60,503 nt of DNA from a virus. Location: positions 1-60,503 of IMG/VR virus record IMGVR_UViG_3300021478_000004; one strand, given 5' to 3'. Each line of letters opens with the position of its first letter. Positions within the stretch are counted from its first letter, which is position 1. The notes beneath the pieces were generated by a model that did no database searches, was not told the origin of the DNA, and saw nothing but the letters and a program-made list of their open reading frames with translations. Positions 8,329 through 30,506 of the stretch are shown here, one piece after another. A program made the translations under genes and the position numbers.

Positions 8329-10308
8329 CTATGCAGGCCGCTGTTGGCCCTGTTGCTGCCCCTGCGGTTGCGCTGGGGGCTGAAACAACTGTAGCGCCTC
8401 GGTCCACATGCGGTGCTGCAATTCAGCCGCGTCAAGCTGCGTCTGCGTCTCGTGCGCGTTGACCTGATGTTGCAGCCCCGCGGCATCGAGATGCACCTTC
8501 GCGCCCGCGACATGGGCATCGTGGATCGTCTTCTGGGCCATCGCGTCGGCTCGGCGTGCCTCGGCCGCGGTCTTGGCGTTCCTTACCGCTTCGCCTTCGA
8601 GAGCGAGCTTCTTTGCCATCTCCTTCGCTGGGTCGGCCTGCGGCGGCTTCGGCGAAAGCATCTGCAAAATCATGTTCTTGCGCTCGCGCGGCATCGGCGA
8701 GAGTTCGATCAAGACCTGGGGCGGGAATGTGCCGGGCGGATATCCCTTTAACGTGTCGTACGCGTCCTGCATGACGGTCTCGACGTCCGGCCCCTCTTCA
8801 AGGACGATGTTCACGTCGAGTGCGCCCAGAAGATTGACCATCGCTGGTCGCCCCCATTGGTCCTCTCCAAGTGCGTTCAACCAAATTCCTGCCTTTACTG
8901 GGTCGTTGTCGTTGATGATTGGCAACCACCGCTCTTTCGTCCATGACCGTTGTGCGGTCGTCCAAATGTCTCGATAGAGTTGTAGCTTCCATTGCCGATA
9001 CGCGAGTACGAACGGACCCAACTCGGCCATGCCGGGCTGGCGCAGCAGTTCCAACGCGCGCCCGGAAATGTTGGCCAGCGACGCGCCCTGAAGCACGGCA
9101 ATATTGGTTCCTGCGAAACTGTCGATTTCCTGACCAGCCTGTTCAGACATCCCATGGAATGCGGCGAGGTCCGTTGTCTTGTCGTCGGGCTCCCACTTTC
9201 TCCCCGGATTTACTTCGATAATTCCGTCCGGGCGAGCCTGCTCGATGCGAGCCTGCTCGACGTTGTCGACCGCGCCCTTCTCGGTAATCACTCGTCGGGT
9301 GTTCGCAAGATGCAATTCCTTGGACTTTGACTGATTGAACGAATCCTGCGGGCCTTTGAGTGCCCGGGCGAACCCGTAGCGATCCCCCTGTTGGTCGACC
9401 GCTGCCGAGAACATATTGAACGACGAAGCGCTATTTCCATCTTTATCGAAAAACGGAGAAATACCCTCGTCTAGCAAGACTGATGAAACGTAGAACGCCC
9501 AGCACCATTTGCCCTTCCGCTTATACCAGTGCTCTATGAGACGAAGGCTCTGGGTCGACGTCACGACCCACTTGTATTCTCGGTCGGCGTTGGTCGTGAG
9601 GTCCGAATCGCCCTGGATAAGGCCTCTGAGCACGTCCTCCTTATGGGGGAAAAGCTCGATTGCCTCCTCGACGTCTAGCCATTTCGACAAGCCCTCGTAG
9701 CGCCGATCATTGAAGTCGAGGCGGTAGGACCGAGGGTCATAGAAATATTCGTCTCCGATGACCCAATTGAGTTTGATGTCGTTTTCGCCGTTTTTCCCAG
9801 GCACCAGCGTACGCTGGACGCCGGCCACGCCGTCGATGCAGCACTGCAAAAGGCACCATGGATCTATGCCTTTCCAGTCGTTGCCGTCGAGAACCGAGCG
9901 GATGACCTGGGTAGCGATATCAGCCCCGGCTTGGCTTCGCACCGAGGTCGGCAAGGCTTTAGGGTCTGACCGAAGCCGCTCCACAAGGCCGACGATGCCA
10001 TTGATCTTACGATTCACCCGGGGCCAAGTGAGCACCGCCTGATGACGTCGTTTCAGGGTTTCAATCTGCTTCCCGTCCCACTGTATGCAATGGTAGTAGC
10101 AACGCGCAATCTTCTGTTCTTCGATCTCTTCGGATTTCGACCAGAGATAGTCTAGGTATTGCGTGCGCAGCTTACGCACGTCTAGGAACTGATCCTTCTC
10201 GTCGTCGTCCGTCTCGCTCACGGACGCGATCTTGTCGCGCTGTTGTGGGTCGCGAACTAGGCCCGTCAGCCGGGATCGGTCCCGAGATAGAAGCTCAGCT
10301 ACGGGCAT
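8329..10308 (-). CDS. Portal protein, P22 gp1 type
   Basis: 659 residues, the size of the P22-like portal class. Recognisable blocks include QYLDYLWSKSEEIEEQKIAR, RRHQAVLTWPRVNRKINGIV, and the crown-to-stem stretch DPWCLLQCCIDGVAGVQRT. Residues from about 560 form a long Ala/Gln-rich helix and low-complexity tail (PPAQPQGQQQGQQRPA), as in the P22 barrel. The dodecamer forms the DNA gate that binds terminase outside and the gp4-like adaptor below. It overlaps the preceding gene by 14 bases. Confidence 0.88.
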   Translation of the reverse strand: MPVAELLSRDRSRLTGLVRDPQQRDKIASVSETDDDEKDQFLDVRKLRTQYLDYLWSKSEEIEEQKIARCYYHCIQWDGKQIETLKRRHQAVLTWPRVNRKINGIVGLVERLRSDPKALPTSVRSQAGADIATQVIRSVLDGNDWKGIDPWCLLQCCIDGVAGVQRTLVPGKNGENDIKLNWVIGDEYFYDPRSYRLDFNDRRYEGLSKWLDVEEAIELFPHKEDVLRGLIQGDSDLTTNADREYKWVVTSTQSLRLIEHWYKRKGKWCWAFYVSSVLLDEGISPFFDKDGNSASSFNMFSAAVDQQGDRYGFARALKGPQDSFNQSKSKELHLANTRRVITEKGAVDNVEQARIEQARPDGIIEVNPGRKWEPDDKTTDLAAFHGMSEQAGQEIDSFAGTNIAVLQGASLANISGRALELLRQPGMAELGPFVLAYRQWKLQLYRDIWTTAQRSWTKERWLPIINDNDPVKAGIWLNALGEDQWGRPAMVNLLGALDVNIVLEEGPDVETVMQDAYDTLKGYPPGTFPPQVLIELSPMPRERKNMILQMLSPKPPQADPAKEMAKKLALEGEAVRNAKTAAEARRADAMAQKTIHDAHVAGAKVHLDAAGLQHQVNAHETQTQLDAAELQHRMWTEALQLFQPPAQPQGQQQGQQRPA

Positions 10309-10594
10309 GCTTGCGTTCTTCGGCTTTCGCTAGCGCCCTGTCCGAAACCGCCCCCGACTTACGCAAATGCCGAGCCTTCATGGCCAAGCCGTGATGCAGC
10401 TTCGCCTTTTTCTCGTGGTGCTTGGCGATGGCCTCGACGTATTTGCCGTTGGCCTTTATCTTCTCGGCGCGGTCGAGATGGCGGCCGCCTTCGTCCAACT
10501 CGTAATCGTCCCAAGGCCCGTTGGAGCGCTCGTGGGGCTCCTTGTACTCACGGGACGGCGTGGCCGTGGACGATTCGATCGCGGCGCGCGGCAT
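10295..10594 (-). CDS. Small basic protein, unknown
   Basis: 99 residues, overlapping the portal start. The C-terminal half is Lys/His/Ala-rich and helical (KYVEAIAKHHEKKAKLHHGL). No family is recognised. Its place immediately before the portal gene suggests a head-assembly accessory or DNA-binding internal protein. Confidence 0.65.
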   Translation of the reverse strand: MPRAAIESSTATPSREYKEPHERSNGPWDDYELDEGGRHLDRAEKIKANGKYVEAIAKHHEKKAKLHHGLAMKARHLRKSGAVSDRALAKAEERKHARS

Positions 10595-10811: not shown

Positions 10812-12167
10812 CTACGCCCACCCTTGCTTCTCAGCCAACCGCTCGAACGCTCGCTTAGAGATCACGCCGCTCTTCACCATGTCCTCTGCCTTCGCCTGCT
10901 CTTTCGACACCGGCGCATCTCCGGACGCCCCGAGCGTCTCCTTCAAGTCCGCCAGCGCCGTTTCTAGCGCGTCAGGATTGCTCTTGATCTCCAAGGCATG
11001 CACCGTCTTGGCAATTTCCGTCACCTTGCCGATGGCTTCCTTCGCGGTATCGCCGTAAGCGACGACCGCGCCGAGGAACGGCATCTTGTTGGCCTGCGGA
11101 ATGACGTACTTGCTGCCTTCGTGCTCAGTGAAATACCTGAGCTTGACGTTCTCGTCGTACTCTTTCGGGTATGTCACCTTGACCCACGATTCCGCTAGCT
11201 CCTCGCTCGTCAAGATCAGTTCCGCGCCCCACTTGCCGGAGAATTCCGGCTCTATCAAAACGCCCTCGGCTCCGTACCAGACGATATCTCCTAGGTTGGT
11301 CATCATGATCTGATAGAGTTCGCCCGGAGGCGAAGGCATGCGGCAGCACGGGTCTATGAGATAATCGTGGCCGTCTTCGGTGCTTCTAATTTCGGCCGAA
11401 AGAAAGCCGCGGTAGTTGTATTTCTTGAGTTGCGGCGAGAGCTTGGCGTTGATACTGCTGACCGCCGCGGGAATCTTGCTGTATTTTACCACCTTGGCGA
11501 CGAGCGCCGTATCCTTGGCCTCTACGCCGACGAGGCAATAATCGGTAAATTGGCCGTCGATCGTATAGCCGTCATAGGCCAACTCGATCGCCGGGCCGGT
11601 GTTGTCCTCGACGATGAACTCCATCAAGTCGGCCTTAGGCCCTAGCTTATAGTCGATCTCGTCGAGCTTGCCCTCAACCGCCTCGAAAGTCGGCGCATGG
11701 AATGTCTCCATGTCTCCGCGCGTCCGGCTGATCTTCACGTACTGATCGTCGTTCGCCTTGAGATACCGGCGAAGCTTCTCGATCCCCATCATGGTTTTGT
11801 AGGGGCCGACTTCGATGCCGAGCCGCGTGCTGATTTCCTTCGACTTCGCGCGATCTATTTCTAGTTCGCAGCCGCCGCGACAACCCCATACGCGCTTGCC
11901 GAGGCTGACGAGGTACTTCTGAACGTCGCCCTCGTAGACGTCGGGAAAAACAAATATGTCGACCTCGTCGAGCCGCGTCCATGGGCTGTCGACGCTTTCG
12001 ATTTCCGGCACGCCCATCGCGATCATCTGCAATTGCGACGTTGGAAAGCCGGTCACCCACGGACAGTAGTACAGGACTTTGCCGAACTGCTTGGATAGGG
12101 TGACAGCGAGGGAGACGAAGAGGCCGTTGTCCCAGACCAGCGCCGTCTTGCTTTTCAGGTCCGTCAA
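10812..12167 (-). CDS. ATP-grasp ligase-like protein
   Basis: 451 residues from a TTG at 12167. That start overlaps the upstream stop (TTGA) and has GGGGGA just before it; the frame is open further up, but only inside the previous gene. The N-terminal 90 residues look like a pre-ATP-grasp alpha/beta domain (YYCPWVTGFP, DIFVFPDVYEGDVQKYLVSL). The ATP-grasp fold follows: QYVKISRTRGDMETF (142-156) as the first ATP-binding lysine strand, LMEFIVED, then YRGFLSAEIRS (252-262) and YLIDPCCRMPSPPGE (269-283) in place of the Mg-binding E-x-N loop. ATP-grasp enzymes join a carboxylate to an amine. Phage versions near head genes are known, and cell-wall or virion modification has been proposed for them. 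The substrate here is unknown. Confidence 0.72.
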   Translation of the reverse strand: MTDLKSKTALVWDNGLFVSLAVTLSKQFGKVLYYCPWVTGFPTSQLQMIAMGVPEIESVDSPWTRLDEVDIFVFPDVYEGDVQKYLVSLGKRVWGCRGGCELEIDRAKSKEISTRLGIEVGPYKTMMGIEKLRRYLKANDDQYVKISRTRGDMETFHAPTFEAVEGKLDEIDYKLGPKADLMEFIVEDNTGPAIELAYDGYTIDGQFTDYCLVGVEAKDTALVAKVVKYSKIPAAVSSINAKLSPQLKKYNYRGFLSAEIRSTEDGHDYLIDPCCRMPSPPGELYQIMMTNLGDIVWYGAEGVLIEPEFSGKWGAELILTSEELAESWVKVTYPKEYDENVKLRYFTEHEGSKYVIPQANKMPFLGAVVAYGDTAKEAIGKVTEIAKTVHALEIKSNPDALETALADLKETLGASGDAPVSKEQAKAEDMVKSGVISKRAFERLAEKQGWA

Positions 12168-12580
12168 GATTCCCCCGATCGATATTCCAACCCGTTTACA
12201 GCCGCCTCGTAAGCGTCCCAACTCACTCCTAGCACCATCGCCGCAAACCGCTCGACAAGCGTCGCGAGATGATGTCCCTCGCGATACGGGGCCTTCGGAT
12301 CGTCCCCCGGCTCGCTAAAATCCCCGGGCTTGCGGTTCTTCTCGTAATCCATGTCGAACGCATCCACGTCGGCTTGCTTCACGCCGCGACGCTTGCACCA
12401 CGCGAGTTCGAGCATCTCATGGAACGCGACCAAGAACTGATAGCGCCAGTCGCCGAGTTCAGAGACCCGGATGTGCCAGCCTTCCTCATCCGTCCACCAA
12501 TCTCCGACCGTGTCGTAGCGCTGGCTGTTGTGGGGGATGGTCTTGATCTCGATCATGCCGTCGAAGAGTGACTCTCGCAT
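12164..12580 (-). CDS. Small HExxE protein, putative metal-binding/zincin-like
   Basis: 138 residues from the ATG at 12580, which has GGAGGA 8 bases upstream. It contains FLVAFHEMLELAWCKRRGV, an H-E-x-x-E variant of the zincin helix, then DAFDMDYE, EPGDDPKAPYREGHHLAT and VERFAAMVLGVSWDAYE. I recognise this as a recurrent phage family with the same order of blocks, normally annotated as hypothetical. The invariant His/Glu pair and the later His suggest a metal site. It is coupled to the ATP-grasp gene by a TTGA overlap, so the two may act in one modification step. Confidence 0.65.
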   Translation of the reverse strand: MRESLFDGMIEIKTIPHNSQRYDTVGDWWTDEEGWHIRVSELGDWRYQFLVAFHEMLELAWCKRRGVKQADVDAFDMDYEKNRKPGDFSEPGDDPKAPYREGHHLATLVERFAAMVLGVSWDAYEAAVNGLEYRSGES

Positions 12581-12640: not shown

Positions 12641-13015
12641 TCAATGCGCCGTCCAATTAGTTCCGTTGCAGAACAGTGGCCCGATGAGAGCGCCTCCCGA
12701 AACATAGGTCGCGTTGTAGGTCATCGTCGTGATGTCGTTCGACCATACGTTCTGTCCCGCGTTGTCCGCATTGCAAGTCGGTATGGGAGTTCCTGCCGCA
12801 CTGTACGGCCCTGGGATAGGAACAGCCGATAGGCCCTTTATCAAGTCCTGCTTGCTGCCGAAGTAGGTATCCCACGTACCTTGTGTCGGCGCTGATCCTG
12901 GATCGAACGGCGGGACGGTCTGGGCGACAGCTTGCGCCACCAGCGCGGCACGCCAGCATGCGGCAAAGAAGGCAATCTCCAGCAGAAGCGCCGCGATGAT
13001 GAGACGGCCTCGCAT
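12641..13015 (-). CDS. Exported small protein, beta-rich C-terminus
   Basis: 124 residues. The ATG at 13015 overlaps the upstream stop (TGATG). Residues 1-33 are a hydrophobic export signal or anchor (LIIAALLLEIAFFAACWRAA then AVAQT). The C-terminal TCNADNAGQNVWSNDITTM, YVSGGALIGP and FCNGTNWTAH resemble the end module of the tail proteins at 46623 and 52795 (HCNGTNWTVM). The shared ending suggests a surface or fibre-like beta module, reused here far from the tail genes. Confidence 0.65.
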   Translation of the reverse strand: MRGRLIIAALLLEIAFFAACWRAALVAQAVAQTVPPFDPGSAPTQGTWDTYFGSKQDLIKGLSAVPIPGPYSAAGTPIPTCNADNAGQNVWSNDITTMTYNATYVSGGALIGPLFCNGTNWTAH

Positions 13016-13224
13016 CACTCCTCGCCCTTCATCTTCGCCATCTGTTTTGGCGACACCAGCCCGCGCTTGGCCATCTTGTACGCGTGCTTCGGGAGGCGCT
13101 TGATCTTGCGGCCGTGGTCGGCCTTGACGAACTCGGCTCCCACTTTTTTTGGGATTCCGATCGTCGAGCGGCCTTCTTCAGCCGCATGCATAGCGCGCGA
13201 TTGTGATTGCGATTTTGATGGCAT
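13015..13224 (-). CDS. Small basic protein, DUF3008-like start
   Basis: 69 residues from the ATG at 13224; a longer frame would lie wholly inside the upstream gene. It opens with MPSKSQSQSRAMHAAEEGRS, the MPxKSxxQxRxM signature of DUF3008-type proteins, followed by a Lys-rich tail. Basic, compact and coded in the head module; a DNA-packing or assembly role is plausible but unproven. Confidence 0.65.
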   Translation of the reverse strand: MPSKSQSQSRAMHAAEEGRSTIGIPKKVGAEFVKADHGRKIKRLPKHAYKMAKRGLVSPKQMAKMKGEE

Positions 13225-13282
13225 TTCGCGGGTTGCCTTTCCTCGGTATTCGACGAGGGCGTTGTTAGGTCCGGTGGCGGTT

Positions 13283-14026
13283 TCAGCCACCGTCTTGTTG
13301 CGCTGCCTCGGCGCGAGCCTGCTGCTCGTCATGCCATTTCTTGTACGAAGCCTGATCGCTCTCGGCCTGCGTCTTGGGCTTGACAGCCGCCTGGTTCTTA
13401 GCGGCCGTGGCCCTTGCGTCGGCCGCGTCCTTGTCCGCCTTGACCTTGGCGTCTCTCGCCTGGGCTTCGGTGTCCCACTGCGTCCCCTGTAGCGCTGGAT
13501 TGGGCAATCCCGGCGCGGGCGGGCCGTGGTCCATGTTGTTGCGAGCATCCATAGCCGCTTGCTTGATGCGCCGATCATCCATGTGCTCGCTCTGCCACAT
13601 CGCCACGCGGGCTCTATATCCGTCGTCGCTCTCGCCGGTGGCCCTTGCGGGCATCGCATCCGGCTCGCTCCGCCACTTCTCTACGCGAGCCTTATGGGCT
13701 TCCTCGGTCTCGCCAAAGGCTCGCTTGGGTGCGTTTGCGGCTTCGGCCCGCTTCTCCTCGGCCTCATCGTCTTCCTGCCATCGAGCATACGATCCGCGCT
13801 CCGGCACGTCGCCCTCGCCGTCCCACACATGAACGGACGGGCGTTGCCACAGCGATCCCTCCTTGCCGAACACGGCTAGGTTGACCAGCGGGCTTGCCTT
13901 AGCGTCGACGTGACGATGCGAATGCACATAGGTCACGAACGCCAAAAGCGGCTGGTCCGAGTGCATCACCGTTTCGTGCCCACCGGCATAAAACCACAAC
14001 GGTTGGCCTACTCGTAGGTCTTTCAT
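13283..14026 (-). CDS. Two-part protein: small beta domain plus charged helical tail
   Basis: 247 residues, ATG with GGAGG 9 bases upstream. Residues 1-75 form a compact domain (VGQPLWFYAGGHETVM, VHVWDGEGDVPERGSYARW) that I have seen as a stand-alone phage protein of unknown role. The rest is a long, Ala/Glu/Lys-rich helical tail containing two similar segments ending RVEKWRSE and RVAMWQSE, an internal repeat of about 33 residues. The tail resembles scaffold-like assembly factors. Function unknown. Confidence 0.75.
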   Translation of the reverse strand: MKDLRVGQPLWFYAGGHETVMHSDQPLLAFVTYVHSHRHVDAKASPLVNLAVFGKEGSLWQRPSVHVWDGEGDVPERGSYARWQEDDEAEEKRAEAANAPKRAFGETEEAHKARVEKWRSEPDAMPARATGESDDGYRARVAMWQSEHMDDRRIKQAAMDARNNMDHGPPAPGLPNPALQGTQWDTEAQARDAKVKADKDAADARATAAKNQAAVKPKTQAESDQASYKKWHDEQQARAEAAQQDGG

Positions 14027-28445: not shown

Positions 28446-28753
28446 GCGTCGACGACCTCGCGCTTCGGAAGGCGATCCAGAATGGATTGGAACACGGAAA
28501 TGTCGGCTTTGGGCTCGACGACAGGGCGGAAGCGCCACGAAAAGAAAGCGGTCTCGATACCGCTGCCATCCCAACACACTCGAGCCGTAACCTCTTTCAG
28601 GTAGATCGCGATTCCAGGCTCACCGATCGCTGGTCTGACCGACCTTATGGTGTAGACAGCGCCTAGATCAAGGCTTCCCTCTACGATCCAATAAGGGTTG
28701 ATGTCATCTGCATCCACGCAAACGACTTTCTGACCTATGTGCCAATCAGTCAT
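28442..28753 (-). CDS. Conserved small phage protein, SH3-like beta fold likely
   Basis: 103 residues. WHIGQKVVCVDADDIN, GAVYTIRSVRPAIGEPGIAI and FFSWRFRPVVEPKADISVF follow a pattern common in alphaproteobacterial phages (GQKVVCVDD...GxxYTVR...RFRPV..R.TDISIF). Function unknown. Coupled on both sides by ATGA overlaps. Confidence 0.72.
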   Translation of the reverse strand: MTDWHIGQKVVCVDADDINPYWIVEGSLDLGAVYTIRSVRPAIGEPGIAIYLKEVTARVCWDGSGIETAFFSWRFRPVVEPKADISVFQSILDRLPKREVVDA

Positions 28754-28857
28754 CGCTCATCCCCCCGACGGATTCCGGCCCCAATCAAACACCCCAACGC
28801 CGTGGATAGCGATGCCCAAACGATTAGGTCTGCGAGAATGTGAAGGATGAGTGTCAT
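28750..28857 (-). CDS. 35-residue single-span membrane protein
   Basis: MTLILHILADLIVWASLSTA followed by LGCLIGAGIRRGDER: one membrane helix and a charged end. The ATG at 28857 overlaps the Cro-like gene's stop and its own TGA overlaps the next ATG, both as ATGA. That double coupling is the main evidence that so short a gene is real. Confidence 0.55.
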   Translation of the reverse strand: MTLILHILADLIVWASLSTALGCLIGAGIRRGDER

Positions 28858-29072
28858 TCTGCGGCGACCTTCCTCGCATGCGCGAACATGAGAATTTCGG
28901 CCGTCAGACCTATCTCTCGGCCTTTTTCGCTTGCGAGAATGGTAGGCCAGTATGCCGGGGGAATAGACCCGCGCCGCTTCATTTCCGAAGCCGTGGAGGG
29001 TCCTACGGACAGGATGCGCGCTACGTTCGCGCCCCCGCCCAGCTTCTCGACAATTTCAGCGACCGTGTTCAT
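28854..29072 (-). CDS. Cro/YdaS-like repressor, first gene of the leftward operon
   Basis: 72 residues from the ATG at 29072; an earlier ATG (29096) would fall between the -35 and -10 of the predicted promoter. EIVEKLGGGANVARILSVGP followed by STASEMKRRGSIPPAYWPTI is the YdaS/Cro helix-turn-helix with its typical 'IPxxYW' continuation. It faces the CI-like gene across a palindromic operator, as Cro does in lambdoid switches. Confidence 0.72.
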   Translation of the reverse strand: MNTVAEIVEKLGGGANVARILSVGPSTASEMKRRGSIPPAYWPTILASEKGREIGLTAEILMFAHARKVAAE

Positions 29073-29082
29073 GCCTACACGG

Positions 29083-29114
29083 CCTACACTACTCATGTTG
29101 GCTTTGTCAACATG
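29083..29114 (-). promoter_or_regulatory. Leftward early promoter and palindromic operator
   Basis: CATGTTG-GCTTTGT-CAACATG (29094-29114) is a perfect 7-bp-arm palindrome. On the minus strand it carries TTGACA (29110-29105) as -35; TGTAGG after 16 bases is a weak -10. The same CATGTTGACA string occurs at 29889-29898 on the plus strand. Repressor binding here would cover the promoter. Confidence 0.6.
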
Positions 29115-29148
29115 ATTTATGTGCACCAGCCGAAATATCTTCCAGCCC

Positions 29149-29640
29149 ATGGATGAGACGATGGGAGAACGGCTGAAAAGCGCGCGGATCGCCTTGGGCA
29201 TTCCATCGGCGAGAAAGGCGGCAAAGCGATTCGGCTGGACGATATCCACCTATGCCGCTCACGAGAACGGCCAAAATAATTTCGATTCGGCAACCGCGGC
29301 TATTTACGCCAAGACGTACAATGTTTCTGCGGCGTGGCTGCTCACTGGCGAGGGGTATCGCTCCGCTAAGGCTCTTTCTCGGACCAATCCGACGCAGCCG
29401 GACGCGCCACATGCGGCACGGGCGCCAACGGGCATTTCGTTGACGGGCAGGCTTCGCAGCATAGAGCCAGACGAAACACCTGAGTTACAGAACGTGTGGG
29501 AACTGGTCGAGGCGACAGTTCGCAAGGTCTTTCCGTTCGCCGCAGATAGGCTTCCCACGGAGGATGAAGTTCTCGCTCTGGTAAGGTCAGTGATAGCAGA
29601 CTTCGAAGCCCGGAGAGTTCTGCCGCCTCGTGGTAAGTGA
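29149..29640 (+). CDS. CI-like HTH repressor without peptidase domain
   Basis: 163 residues from the ATG at 29149; ATGs at 29119 and 29161 are alternatives and none has a strong RBS. MDETMGERLKSARIALGIPS, KAAKRFGWTISTYAAHENGQ, AKTYNVSAAWLLTGEG is the XRE-type HTH (residues 6-60) of phage repressors. The C-terminal part is helical (ELVEATVRKVFPFAADRL) and lacks the LexA-like Ser-Lys peptidase, so induction would not go by RecA-driven self-cleavage. Divergent from the Cro-like gene. Confidence 0.78.
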   Translation: MDETMGERLKSARIALGIPSARKAAKRFGWTISTYAAHENGQNNFDSATAAIYAKTYNVSAAWLLTGEGYRSAKALSRTNPTQPDAPHAARAPTGISLTGRLRSIEPDETPELQNVWELVEATVRKVFPFAADRLPTEDEVLALVRSVIADFEARRVLPPRGK

Positions 29641-29722
29641 GCGGATAGCCGAATTCGTCCTTCAGCATAAGATCGCAAAGACGACATAGCAGCTGCGCGC
29701 GCGTCAAGTCTGCGCTACACAT
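29366..29722 (-). CDS. Possible gene antisense to the repressor's 3' half
   Basis: 118 residues from the ATG at 29722, which has GGGG 8 bases upstream and a good promoter about 80-100 bases before it. The first 29 codons lie outside the repressor gene and read like protein (MCSADLTRAQLLCRLCDLML, EFGYPLTYHEAAELSGL). The remainder runs antisense to the repressor and becomes Pro/Cys-rich. It may be a short real protein with a fortuitous tail, or only an antisense RNA. Low confidence. Confidence 0.3.
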   Translation of the reverse strand: MCSADLTRAQLLCRLCDLMLKDEFGYPLTYHEAAELSGLRSLLSLTLPERELHPPWEAYLRRTERPCELSPRPVPTRSVTQVFRLALCCEACPSTKCPLAPVPHVARPAASDWSEKEP

Positions 29723-29798
29723 TGGCATTTCCCCACTGGATAATTTACTTATCTACATTTCACGCGATAGCCGTCATAAACCGTTAACATATAATATG

Positions 29799-29826
29799 AA
29801 TATATTGTGACCGTTTGGAAAGTCAA
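29799..29826 (-). promoter_or_regulatory. Minus-strand promoter antisense to the repressor
   Basis: On the minus strand: TTGACT (29826-29821), 16-base spacer, TATATT (29804-29799). It points toward the 3' end of the repressor gene and would drive the ORF starting at 29722 or an antisense RNA. Confidence 0.55.
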
Positions 29827-29888
29827 ATCGGCGTGTGCGCGCCGCTCACGCGGACGCCGCGAAAATAAATTCGCCCGTCTACATTTTC

Positions 29889-29921
29889 CATGTTGACATG
29901 ATTTGTGTTCGCGTGTACGCC
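29889..29921 (+). promoter_or_regulatory. Rightward promoter with repressor-like half-site
   Basis: CATGTTGACATG (29889-29900) is a palindrome with CATGT/ACATG arms and contains a consensus TTGACA (29893-29898). It repeats the CATGTTGACA of the leftward operator. The -10 at the right distance is poor, so activation or an alternative -10 is possible. It lies about 70 bases before the GTG of the HNH-AP2 gene. Confidence 0.5.
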
Positions 29922-29969
29922 TCTCCCCACGCCGAAGCACGGAGCGCGGCGAACCCGGGGAAAGATGCA

Positions 29970-30506
29970 GTGCTAACCGATCTCACTGTCGAACGCGTAA
30001 GGCAGGTTTTGGATTACGATCCTGAGACCGGCATCTTCACGTGGATTGTACGCCTGAGTAACCGGGCATGTGAGGGGCATGCTACCAAGGGCAGTCTGGA
30101 CGGAAAGGGCTATTACCGCCTGATGATTGATCGGCGGACGTATCAAGCCCATCGCATCGCGTGGCTCCATGCCTATGGAGTGTGGCCGACCATGGTGATC
30201 GATCACATCGATCGCGATCCTGCCAATAATCGTCTGAGCAACCTACGCGATGTCTCCTATGCCGTGAATAGCACTAACTGCTCGCCGTCGCACGGAGGTC
30301 ACGCGCGGGACACCGACGCACGTGGATGCACGTTCGTAGCGAGAACGCAGAGGTGGCAGGCGCAAATATCAATCAACGGAGTCAACAAATATCTAGGTTA
30401 TTTCAAAGAACTAGCCGACGCTAGGGCTGCGTATAAGCGGGCCAAACTTGAGCACGAGCAATCCACCGACGCCAAATTCGCCGCCCTCCGCGCCGCGCTG
30501 GCCTGA
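29970..30506 (+). CDS. HNH endonuclease with AP2-type DNA-binding domain
   Basis: 178 residues from the GTG at 29970 (GGGGAAAG upstream); homologues begin at the same LTDLTVERVRQ. The HNH_3 core is YQAHRIAWLHAYGVWPTMVI followed by DHIDRDPANNRLSNLRDVS. The C-terminal AP2-like domain is RGCTFVARTQRWQAQISING, VNKYLGYFKELADARAAYKR. This domain pair is typical of phage homing endonucleases. It sits as first gene of the rightward operon. Confidence 0.88.
   Translation: MLTDLTVERVRQVLDYDPETGIFTWIVRLSNRACEGHATKGSLDGKGYYRLMIDRRTYQAHRIAWLHAYGVWPTMVIDHIDRDPANNRLSNLRDVSYAVNSTNCSPSHGGHARDTDARGCTFVARTQRWQAQISINGVNKYLGYFKELADARAAYKRAKLEHEQSTDAKFAALRAALA

What the first reader, a model, noticed from the sequence alone, without database searches (positions are those of the whole stretch)
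10812..12580. ATP-grasp ligase and HExxE protein coupled inside the head operon
An ATP-grasp enzyme overlaps a small conserved protein with FHEMLE by TTGA, between terminase and portal genes. ATP-grasp enzymes make amide or peptide bonds. In this setting they may modify capsid protein, add a tag, or change host wall peptides. The partner could be a metallo-enzyme that removes or prepares the group.
Basis: partly seen in the sequence, partly recalled or inferred. Interest (0 to 1): 0.75.

Follow-up and report, generated by a model that had tools for sequence, protein, structure and literature searches.

The report
Phage amide-ligase and metalloprotein gene pair
Many uncultured phages, this one included, carry a tightly coupled pair of genes for an ATP-driven bond-forming enzyme and a small metal-site protein, and sister phages pair the same enzyme with arginine-decarboxylase-type enzymes, which points to an undescribed viral chemistry on small amines or amine-modified proteins.

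Summary
The two genes lie at 12580-12164 and 12167-10812 (- strand), overlap by TTGA, and sit between the large terminase and portal genes. Neither matches Pfam or PHROGs, and none of 50,697 GenBank phages encodes either. The larger protein is an ATP-grasp enzyme: its AlphaFold model matches glycinamide ribonucleotide (GAR) synthetase, PurD (Z 29.6), and the catalytic-type residues are invariant in 56 relatives. The small protein has a zincin-like fold with invariant H54, E58 and H103, and near-invariant E110. That is the spacing of the metal site of the EF-P hydroxylase YfcM, with one His and one Glu exchanged.

Co-occurrence is strong. Of 57 dereplicated viral loci of the ATP-grasp family, 27 have the small gene beside it, in either order, 11 of them checked to have a 4-base stop/start overlap. 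Thirteen have a SpeD-family (AdoMet decarboxylase-like) gene nearby; another has a pyruvoyl arginine decarboxylase. Neither family was found in about 85,000 prokaryote genomes with the patterns used.

The cassette sits beside head, replication, recombination or tail genes, so capsid modification is not its general role. Best reading: a phage amide-ligation cassette acting on an amine. Substrate, product and target are unknown.

The parts
12164..12580 (-). Small HExxE metalloprotein-like gene (138 aa), here called HX; putative metal quartet H54, E58, H103, E110
   Evidence: AlphaFold pLDDT 91.7; zincin-like fold (selecase Z 5.1, CapP Z 5.0, IrrE Z 4.8); metal-site residues invariant or nearly so in 40 rows
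10812..12167 (-). ATP-grasp amide-ligase gene with GAR-synthetase (PurD) fold (451 aa, TTG start)
   Evidence: pLDDT 86.6; PurD 2yw2 Z 29.6 over 380 residues; profile E 9e-8; invariant E103 R106 K145 R150 E154 D199 E216 K218 E259 D272 R276
12164..12167 (-). TTGA stop/start overlap of the two genes
   Evidence: the same kind of 4-base overlap seen in 11 other checked loci
10812..10904 (-). C-terminal tail (about 30 aa) of the ATP-grasp, shared with the two small neighbours
   Evidence: hits only in this lineage among 15,453 ORFs, none in reversed sequences
10295..10594 (-). Small head-operon gene (99 aa) carrying the same C-terminal tail
13015..13290 (-). Small gene (about 91 aa, probable GTG start near 13290) carrying the same C-terminal tail
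   Evidence: start inferred from the homologue in L068
14332..15834 (-). Terminase large subunit (context)
   Evidence: phrog_38 E 6e-100
8329..10308 (-). Portal protein, P22-like (context)

Best explanation
The pair is a phage-borne amide-ligation cassette. The PurD-fold ATP-grasp enzyme uses MgATP to activate a carboxylate as an acyl phosphate and joins it to an amine. The co-translated HX protein is a small metalloenzyme that acts on the same substrate or product in a second step. Its site (two His, one Glu and a supporting Glu, in the spacing of YfcM/EpmC) fits an Fe-dependent hydroxylation or oxidation slightly better than proteolysis. In sister phages a SpeD-family or pyruvoyl arginine-decarboxylase gene is the partner; it probably makes the amine (agmatine- or putrescine-like), while the window phage would take it from the host. 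Shown: fold, conserved residues, coupling, repeated co-occurrence. Inferred: amide chemistry (from the ATP-grasp superfamily), amine substrate, HX chemistry, and whether the acceptor is a small molecule or a protein.
For: ATP-grasp: Foldseek top hits are all PurD (E 3e-20); VIA-align Z 29.6, rmsd 3.4, 380 aligned; family profile against PDB 2yw2 E 9e-8, aligning D272 with PurD's Mg-ligand Glu, R276 with its Arg and R106 with its Lys. Eleven catalytic-type residues are invariant in 56 rows. Coupling: HX in 27 of 57 dereplicated ATP-grasp loci, 15 HX-first and 12 ATP-grasp-first; 4-base stop/start overlaps in both orders. In 50 whole records every HX lies beside the ATP-grasp, and a record with two ATP-grasp genes has two HX genes. 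On the tree the HX label needs 11 changes, 9 forced by starred branches. HX records without this ATP-grasp carry another GARS-like one (L007, L008, L012, L019, L022, and away from HX in the records of L025 and L027), except short contigs. Amine: SpeD-family genes (PF02675 E 1.4e-8) beside the ATP-grasp, with the pyruvoyl Ser and catalytic Cys kept; the unrelated PvlArgDC in L063/L041 (E 5e-45). HX site: H54 x3 E58 ... H103 x6 E110 against YfcM H59 x3 H63 ... E98 x6 D105 (PMC4231759). The peptidase-type general base E55 is lost in two members while the four metal-site residues stay. In seven lineages HX is longer, with an Erv1/Alr redox domain confirmed by Pfam in two (PF04777 E 4e-8).
Against: The window phage has neither SpeD nor PvlArgDC, so its amine source is not shown. 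In the SpeD-family genes, His68 (T. maritima numbering) is replaced, mostly by Asp, so decarboxylase activity is uncertain. E55 is kept in 38 of 40 HX proteins, which fits a hydrolase too. The YfcM match is weak in structure (Z 3.2); the nearest folds are peptidases. Twenty of the 57 loci have neither HX nor a decarboxylase nearby. No substrate or product is known.
Confidence: 0.5

Rival explanations
1. Ligase and peptidase antagonists: the ATP-grasp adds an aminoacyl or peptide group to a phage or host protein, and HX is a minimal zincin peptidase that removes it or trims the acceptor.
For: HX fold neighbours are peptidases (selecase, CapP, IrrE, abylysin) and IrrE/SprT-like viral proteins; the HE general base is kept in 38 of 40 rows.
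Against: The second motif residue is Glu, not His (HExxE, not HExxH); E55 is lost in L042 and L057 while the metal-site residues remain; fusion to a redox domain in several lineages fits oxidation better.
Confidence: 0.25
2. Head-linked modification: in the window's lineage the ATP-grasp works on, or is packaged with, the small head-operon proteins that carry the same C-terminal tail, and so modifies a virion component.
For: The gene lies between TerL and portal; a C-terminal tail is shared by the ATP-grasp and neighbouring small proteins in window, L002, L003, L068, L047 and L048, with no hit elsewhere among 15,453 ORFs and none in reversed sequences; L049 shows it by eye at the ATP-grasp end.
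Against: Other lineages carry the cassette beside replication or recombination genes and lack the tail; the tail could be only an assembly or dimer motif.
Confidence: 0.15
3. Auxiliary purine gene: a diverged GAR synthetase that boosts host purine synthesis.
For: PurD fold and weak PurD profile similarity.
Against: The PurD N-terminal GxGGREHA phosphate loop is replaced by the conserved DNGLF, and the GDPE motif by GSPP (PurD motifs partly from general knowledge); no other purine gene recurs among the neighbours; SpeD, PvlArgDC and HX partners have no role in that pathway.
Confidence: 0.05

Closest known systems
PurD / GAR synthetase (phosphoribosylamine-glycine ligase), ATP-grasp superfamily
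   Same: Whole fold over 380 residues, order of domains, ATP-grasp catalytic frame
   Different: About 15% identity, no Pfam GARS match, PRA-binding loop and GDPE motif replaced, Lys to Arg at 106, Mg-ligand Asn replaced by Cys/Thr/Ser, found only in viral contigs
YfcM (EpmC), EF-P lysine hydroxylase, partner of the ligase EpmA
   Same: Small zincin-like fold; two His, one Glu and a supporting acid with the same i+4 and i+7 spacings; works after a ligase in EF-P modification (PMC4231759)
   Different: Second and third ligands exchanged (Glu58, His103); structural similarity weak (Z 3.2); the EpmA ligase is not an ATP-grasp (general knowledge)
Minigluzincins and IrrE/CapP-type peptidases
   Same: Closest fold hits (Z 4.6-5.1) and HE at the start of the motif
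   Different: HExxE in place of HExxH; His in place of the third-ligand Glu; HE Glu lost in two members
Phage SpeD-derived arginine/ornithine decarboxylases (PMC9992855, PMC10407285)
   Same: SpeD-family gene in phages with pyruvoyl Ser and catalytic Cys in the same spacing
   Different: His68 replaced, usually by Asp; coupled to this ATP-grasp (word searches found no ligase in either paper; ATP-grasp was searched for only in the second)
ATP-grasp plus amidoligase genes of LUZ24-like phages (PMC3890496)
   Same: Phage ATP-grasp with other amide-chemistry genes
   Different: 291 aa enzyme in the early region, with glutamine amidotransferase and amidoligase partners rather than HX or SpeD

Membership tests
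ATP-grasp superfamily, PurD-like fold | Two-domain ATP-grasp fold with preATP-grasp domain and C-terminal domain | tested here: met
   Z 29.6 to 2yw2, 380 residues aligned
ATP-grasp superfamily, PurD-like fold | ATP-binding Lys, Mg-binding acids and catalytic Arg kept | tested here: met
   K145, E259, D272, R276 invariant in 56 rows; the Mg Asn is replaced and one Lys is Arg106
GAR synthetase (PurD, Pfam GARS_A/GARS_C) | Match to the curated family models above cut-off | tested here: not met
   no Pfam family at E up to 1
GAR synthetase (PurD, Pfam GARS_A/GARS_C) | Phosphoribosylamine-binding GxGGREHA loop | tested here: not met
   conserved DNGLF at that place (the PurD motif itself is from general knowledge)
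Gluzincin / minigluzincin metallopeptidase | HExxH with a third-ligand Glu on the next helix | tested here: not met
   HExxE in the family, with His103 on the next helix
Gluzincin / minigluzincin metallopeptidase | Zincin-like fold | tested here: inconclusive
   best Z 5.1, within the middling range
YfcM/EpmC-like 2-His-1-carboxylate metalloprotein | Two His, one carboxylate and a supporting acid with i+4 and i+7 spacing on two helices | tested here: met
   H54, E58, H103, E110; met as a sequence pattern only, geometry inferred, coordinates not inspected
YfcM/EpmC-like 2-His-1-carboxylate metalloprotein | Fe(II) binding and hydroxylase activity | not testable with these tools
   Needs purified protein
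YfcM/EpmC-like 2-His-1-carboxylate metalloprotein | Overall fold similarity | tested here: inconclusive
   YfcM 4pdn Z 3.2, 71 residues, rmsd 3.8
Ligase plus metalloprotein as a functional pair | Repeated adjacency in unrelated phages | tested here: met

The most novel reading that the evidence does not exclude
A phage-only modification pathway in which a pyruvoyl decarboxylase makes an amine, a PurD-fold ATP-grasp ligates it, and a YfcM-like metal protein hydroxylates or oxidises the product. It would be a viral counterpart of the EF-P/eIF5A type of modification, built from unrelated ligase parts and placed on a phage or host protein or released as a small molecule.
Probability: 0.2. Interest if true: 0.85.

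Novelty: new variant of a known kind. Interest (0 to 1): 0.62.

Why it matters
Two unnamed protein families, absent from Pfam, PHROGs and cultured phage genomes, form a recurring cassette across dozens of diverse uncultured phages. The alternative partners give a testable clue to what these phage ATP-grasp enzymes do: chemistry on decarboxylated amino acids, probably polyamine-like, in amide linkage. If the product is attached to a protein, it would be a new viral post-translational modification; if it is free, a new phage auxiliary metabolite.

Tried and rejected
Pfam and PHROGs scans of both proteins gave nothing useful. Single-sequence search of PDB gave nothing for the ATP-grasp, and a profile search gave nothing for HX. 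GenBank phages: no match for the window pair or for relatives; one 28% relative of the second ATP-grasp type in MW202796, with no gene annotated at the match. Prokaryote genomes: no match for either family, but only with short exact motif patterns, so this is not proof of absence. A full-family alignment failed as a scan query. SHOCT was tested as the identity of the shared tail and not found. PurD function, capsid modification as a general role, and a strict peptidase role were considered and lowered for the reasons given. No structure of the complex, ligand modelling or inspection of model coordinates was possible. Literature: papers with ATP-grasp, phage and decarboxylase terms together were not found in the library; the key 2009 ATP-grasp review is not held.

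Full report
Observation. The window is a 60,503-base IMG/VR virus record. On the - strand the genes run TerS (16363-15698), TerL (15834-14332), small genes, HX (12580-12164), ATP-grasp (12167-10812), a small gene (10594-10295), portal (10308-8329), a probable scaffold and the major capsid protein (7105-5942). HX and the ATP-grasp overlap as TTGA. A 17-kb contig, L001, has this region with 100% identical proteins, and more divergent versions exist (L002, L003, L068).

The ATP-grasp. Pfam and PHROGs give nothing, but a nine-sequence profile finds PurD in the PDB at E 2.7e-4 and a 56-sequence profile at 9e-8. AlphaFold (pLDDT 86.6) gives a model whose Foldseek and VIA-align neighbours are GAR synthetases (2yw2, Z 29.6, rmsd 3.4, 380 residues). 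Across 56 relatives E103, R106, K145, R150, E154, D199, E216, K218, E259, D272 and R276 are invariant. In the profile alignment R106 takes the place of a PurD Lys, D272 the Mg-ligand Glu, R276 the Arg and C274 (Cys/Thr/Ser in relatives) the Mg-ligand Asn. The family also has an invariant Glu (E259) where PurD has Gly; from general knowledge this resembles the first Mg ligand of biotin carboxylase. The N-terminal phosphate-binding loop of PurD is replaced by a conserved DNGLF, so phosphoribosylamine is unlikely to be the substrate. This is an active-looking ATP-grasp ligase with a different amine.

The HExxE protein. AlphaFold gives a confident model (pLDDT 91.7): three strands, then helices, two of which carry the motif residues. 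Solved-structure neighbours are weak but consistent: minimal zincins such as selecase (Z 5.1), CapP (5.0), IrrE (4.8) and abylysin (4.7), with YfcM at 3.2; viral neighbours include IrrE- and SprT-like proteins. In 40 rows (some loci represented twice) H54, E58, D76 and H103 are invariant, E110 is present in 39 and E55 in 38. L042 and L057 have HAIIE and HSLVE, so they lack the Glu that a zincin peptidase uses as general base. In YfcM the metal is held by H59, H63 and E98, with D105 supporting H59 (PMC4231759). HX has H54, E58, H103, E110: the same i+4 and i+7 spacing with one His and one Glu exchanged. In seven dereplicated lineages (L076, L077, L079, L083, L092, L097, L100) HX is about 230 aa or longer and carries a C-terminal Erv1/Alr-like domain, confirmed by Pfam in two of them, with a CPC motif. 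These facts favour a redox metalloenzyme over a peptidase, without excluding the latter.

Co-occurrence. A scan with the HX motif and one with the ATP-grasp start from opposite sides. From the ATP-grasp side, 88 loci reduce to 57 at 85% identity; 27 have HX within 6 kb, separated by at most about 350 bases, 15 with HX first and 12 with the ATP-grasp first. Eleven junctions that were printed have a 4-base ATGA, GTGA or TTGA overlap. Whole-record searches of 50 viruses found HX in 26, always beside the ATP-grasp, and one record (G004) has two ATP-grasp genes each with its own HX. The tree of the ATP-grasp needs 11 changes of the HX label, 9 of them forced by starred branches, so the association has been gained or lost many times. 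From the HX side, loci without this ATP-grasp often carry a different GARS-like ATP-grasp beside HX (L007, L008, L012, L019, L022) or elsewhere in the record (L025, L027); L026 has only a profile match to the second type. The exceptions are contigs of 5-13 kb (L010, L015, L024, L031).

Other partners. Neighbour clustering showed one further recurring small family: about 120-aa proteins that match Pfam AdoMet_dc (best E 1.4e-8), in 13 of the 57 loci, mostly directly upstream of the ATP-grasp (up to about 1.1 kb away in L049); four loci have HX as well. They keep the Ser that becomes the pyruvoyl group and, where complete, the catalytic Cys at the same spacing as T. maritima SpeD, but replace His68, usually by Asp. 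Phage SpeD homologues that decarboxylate arginine or ornithine are known (PMC9992855, PMC10407285). In L063 and L041 the neighbour is instead the unrelated pyruvoyl arginine decarboxylase (PF01862 E 5e-45; E 3e-45 in the whole record). Two non-homologous decarboxylase families beside one ligase family make a decarboxylated amino acid the best guess for its amine. The window's ATP-grasp is nested with the SpeD-associated L047 and L049, although the window has HX in place of SpeD.

Context. Neighbours include portal and terminase genes (window lineage, L054, L056, L057), exonuclease and Sak4 (L083 group), DNA polymerase (L023), ParB, primase, methyltransferase and tail spike genes. The cassette therefore moves among modules, and location in the head operon does not define its role. 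One observation keeps a head link open for this lineage: the ATP-grasp ends in a roughly 30-residue tail (consensus close to A..L..SG.IS...L.K) that also ends two small proteins of the same operon. The tail was found in window, L002, L003, L068, L047 and L048 and nowhere else among 15,453 ORFs of all loci apart from L049 and near-identical contigs, with no hit in reversed sequences. In L049 it is found on two small proteins and seen by eye at the ATP-grasp end. Some of these sequences seeded the tail model, so only the hits in L002, L047, L048, L049 and on the L003 and L068 ATP-grasps are independent. It is not Pfam SHOCT.

Distribution. Nothing in 50,697 GenBank phages and nothing confirmed in 84,980 prokaryote species by motif scan. 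The families appear to be viral and uncultured.

Assessment. The coupled pair and its amide-ligase half are well supported. The amine substrate is a moderate inference, the chemistry of HX a weaker one, and the acceptor is open. The finding is a new variant of known kinds (ATP-grasp ligases in phages, SpeD-type phage decarboxylases) with an undescribed combination.

Noticed in passing
window 10812-10904, 10295-10394, 13015-13090 (- strand): Three proteins between TerL and portal, the ATP-grasp among them, share a C-terminal tail of about 25-31 residues; found only in this phage lineage and not matched by Pfam SHOCT.
   Followed up: partly
L076:9345-10049, L083:9266-9964 and related loci: HX is fused to a C-terminal Erv1/Alr sulfhydryl-oxidase-like domain with a CPC instead of CxxC motif and a conserved HNxVN motif.
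   Followed up: partly
L063:9242-9799 and L041:9242-9799: A pyruvoyl-dependent arginine decarboxylase gene directly downstream of the ATP-grasp in a phage contig.
   Followed up: yes
L008:8835-10133, L012:6220-7581, L019:3986-5344, L115:525-1805, L116:446-1870: Other, more PurD-like ATP-grasp proteins occur beside HX or elsewhere in HX-bearing records; one 28% relative lies unannotated in GenBank phage MW202796.
   Followed up: partly
G004 (contig of L083), 28706-30324 and 91249-92860: One phage record carries two diverged copies of the ATP-grasp plus HX cassette.
   Followed up: partly
L090:7478-7915: A GNAT acetyltransferase gene precedes the ATP-grasp in a locus that has neither HX nor SpeD.
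   Followed up: no
L012:8391-9281: A papain-like cysteine protease gene (PF00112 just under the cut-off) follows HX.
   Followed up: no
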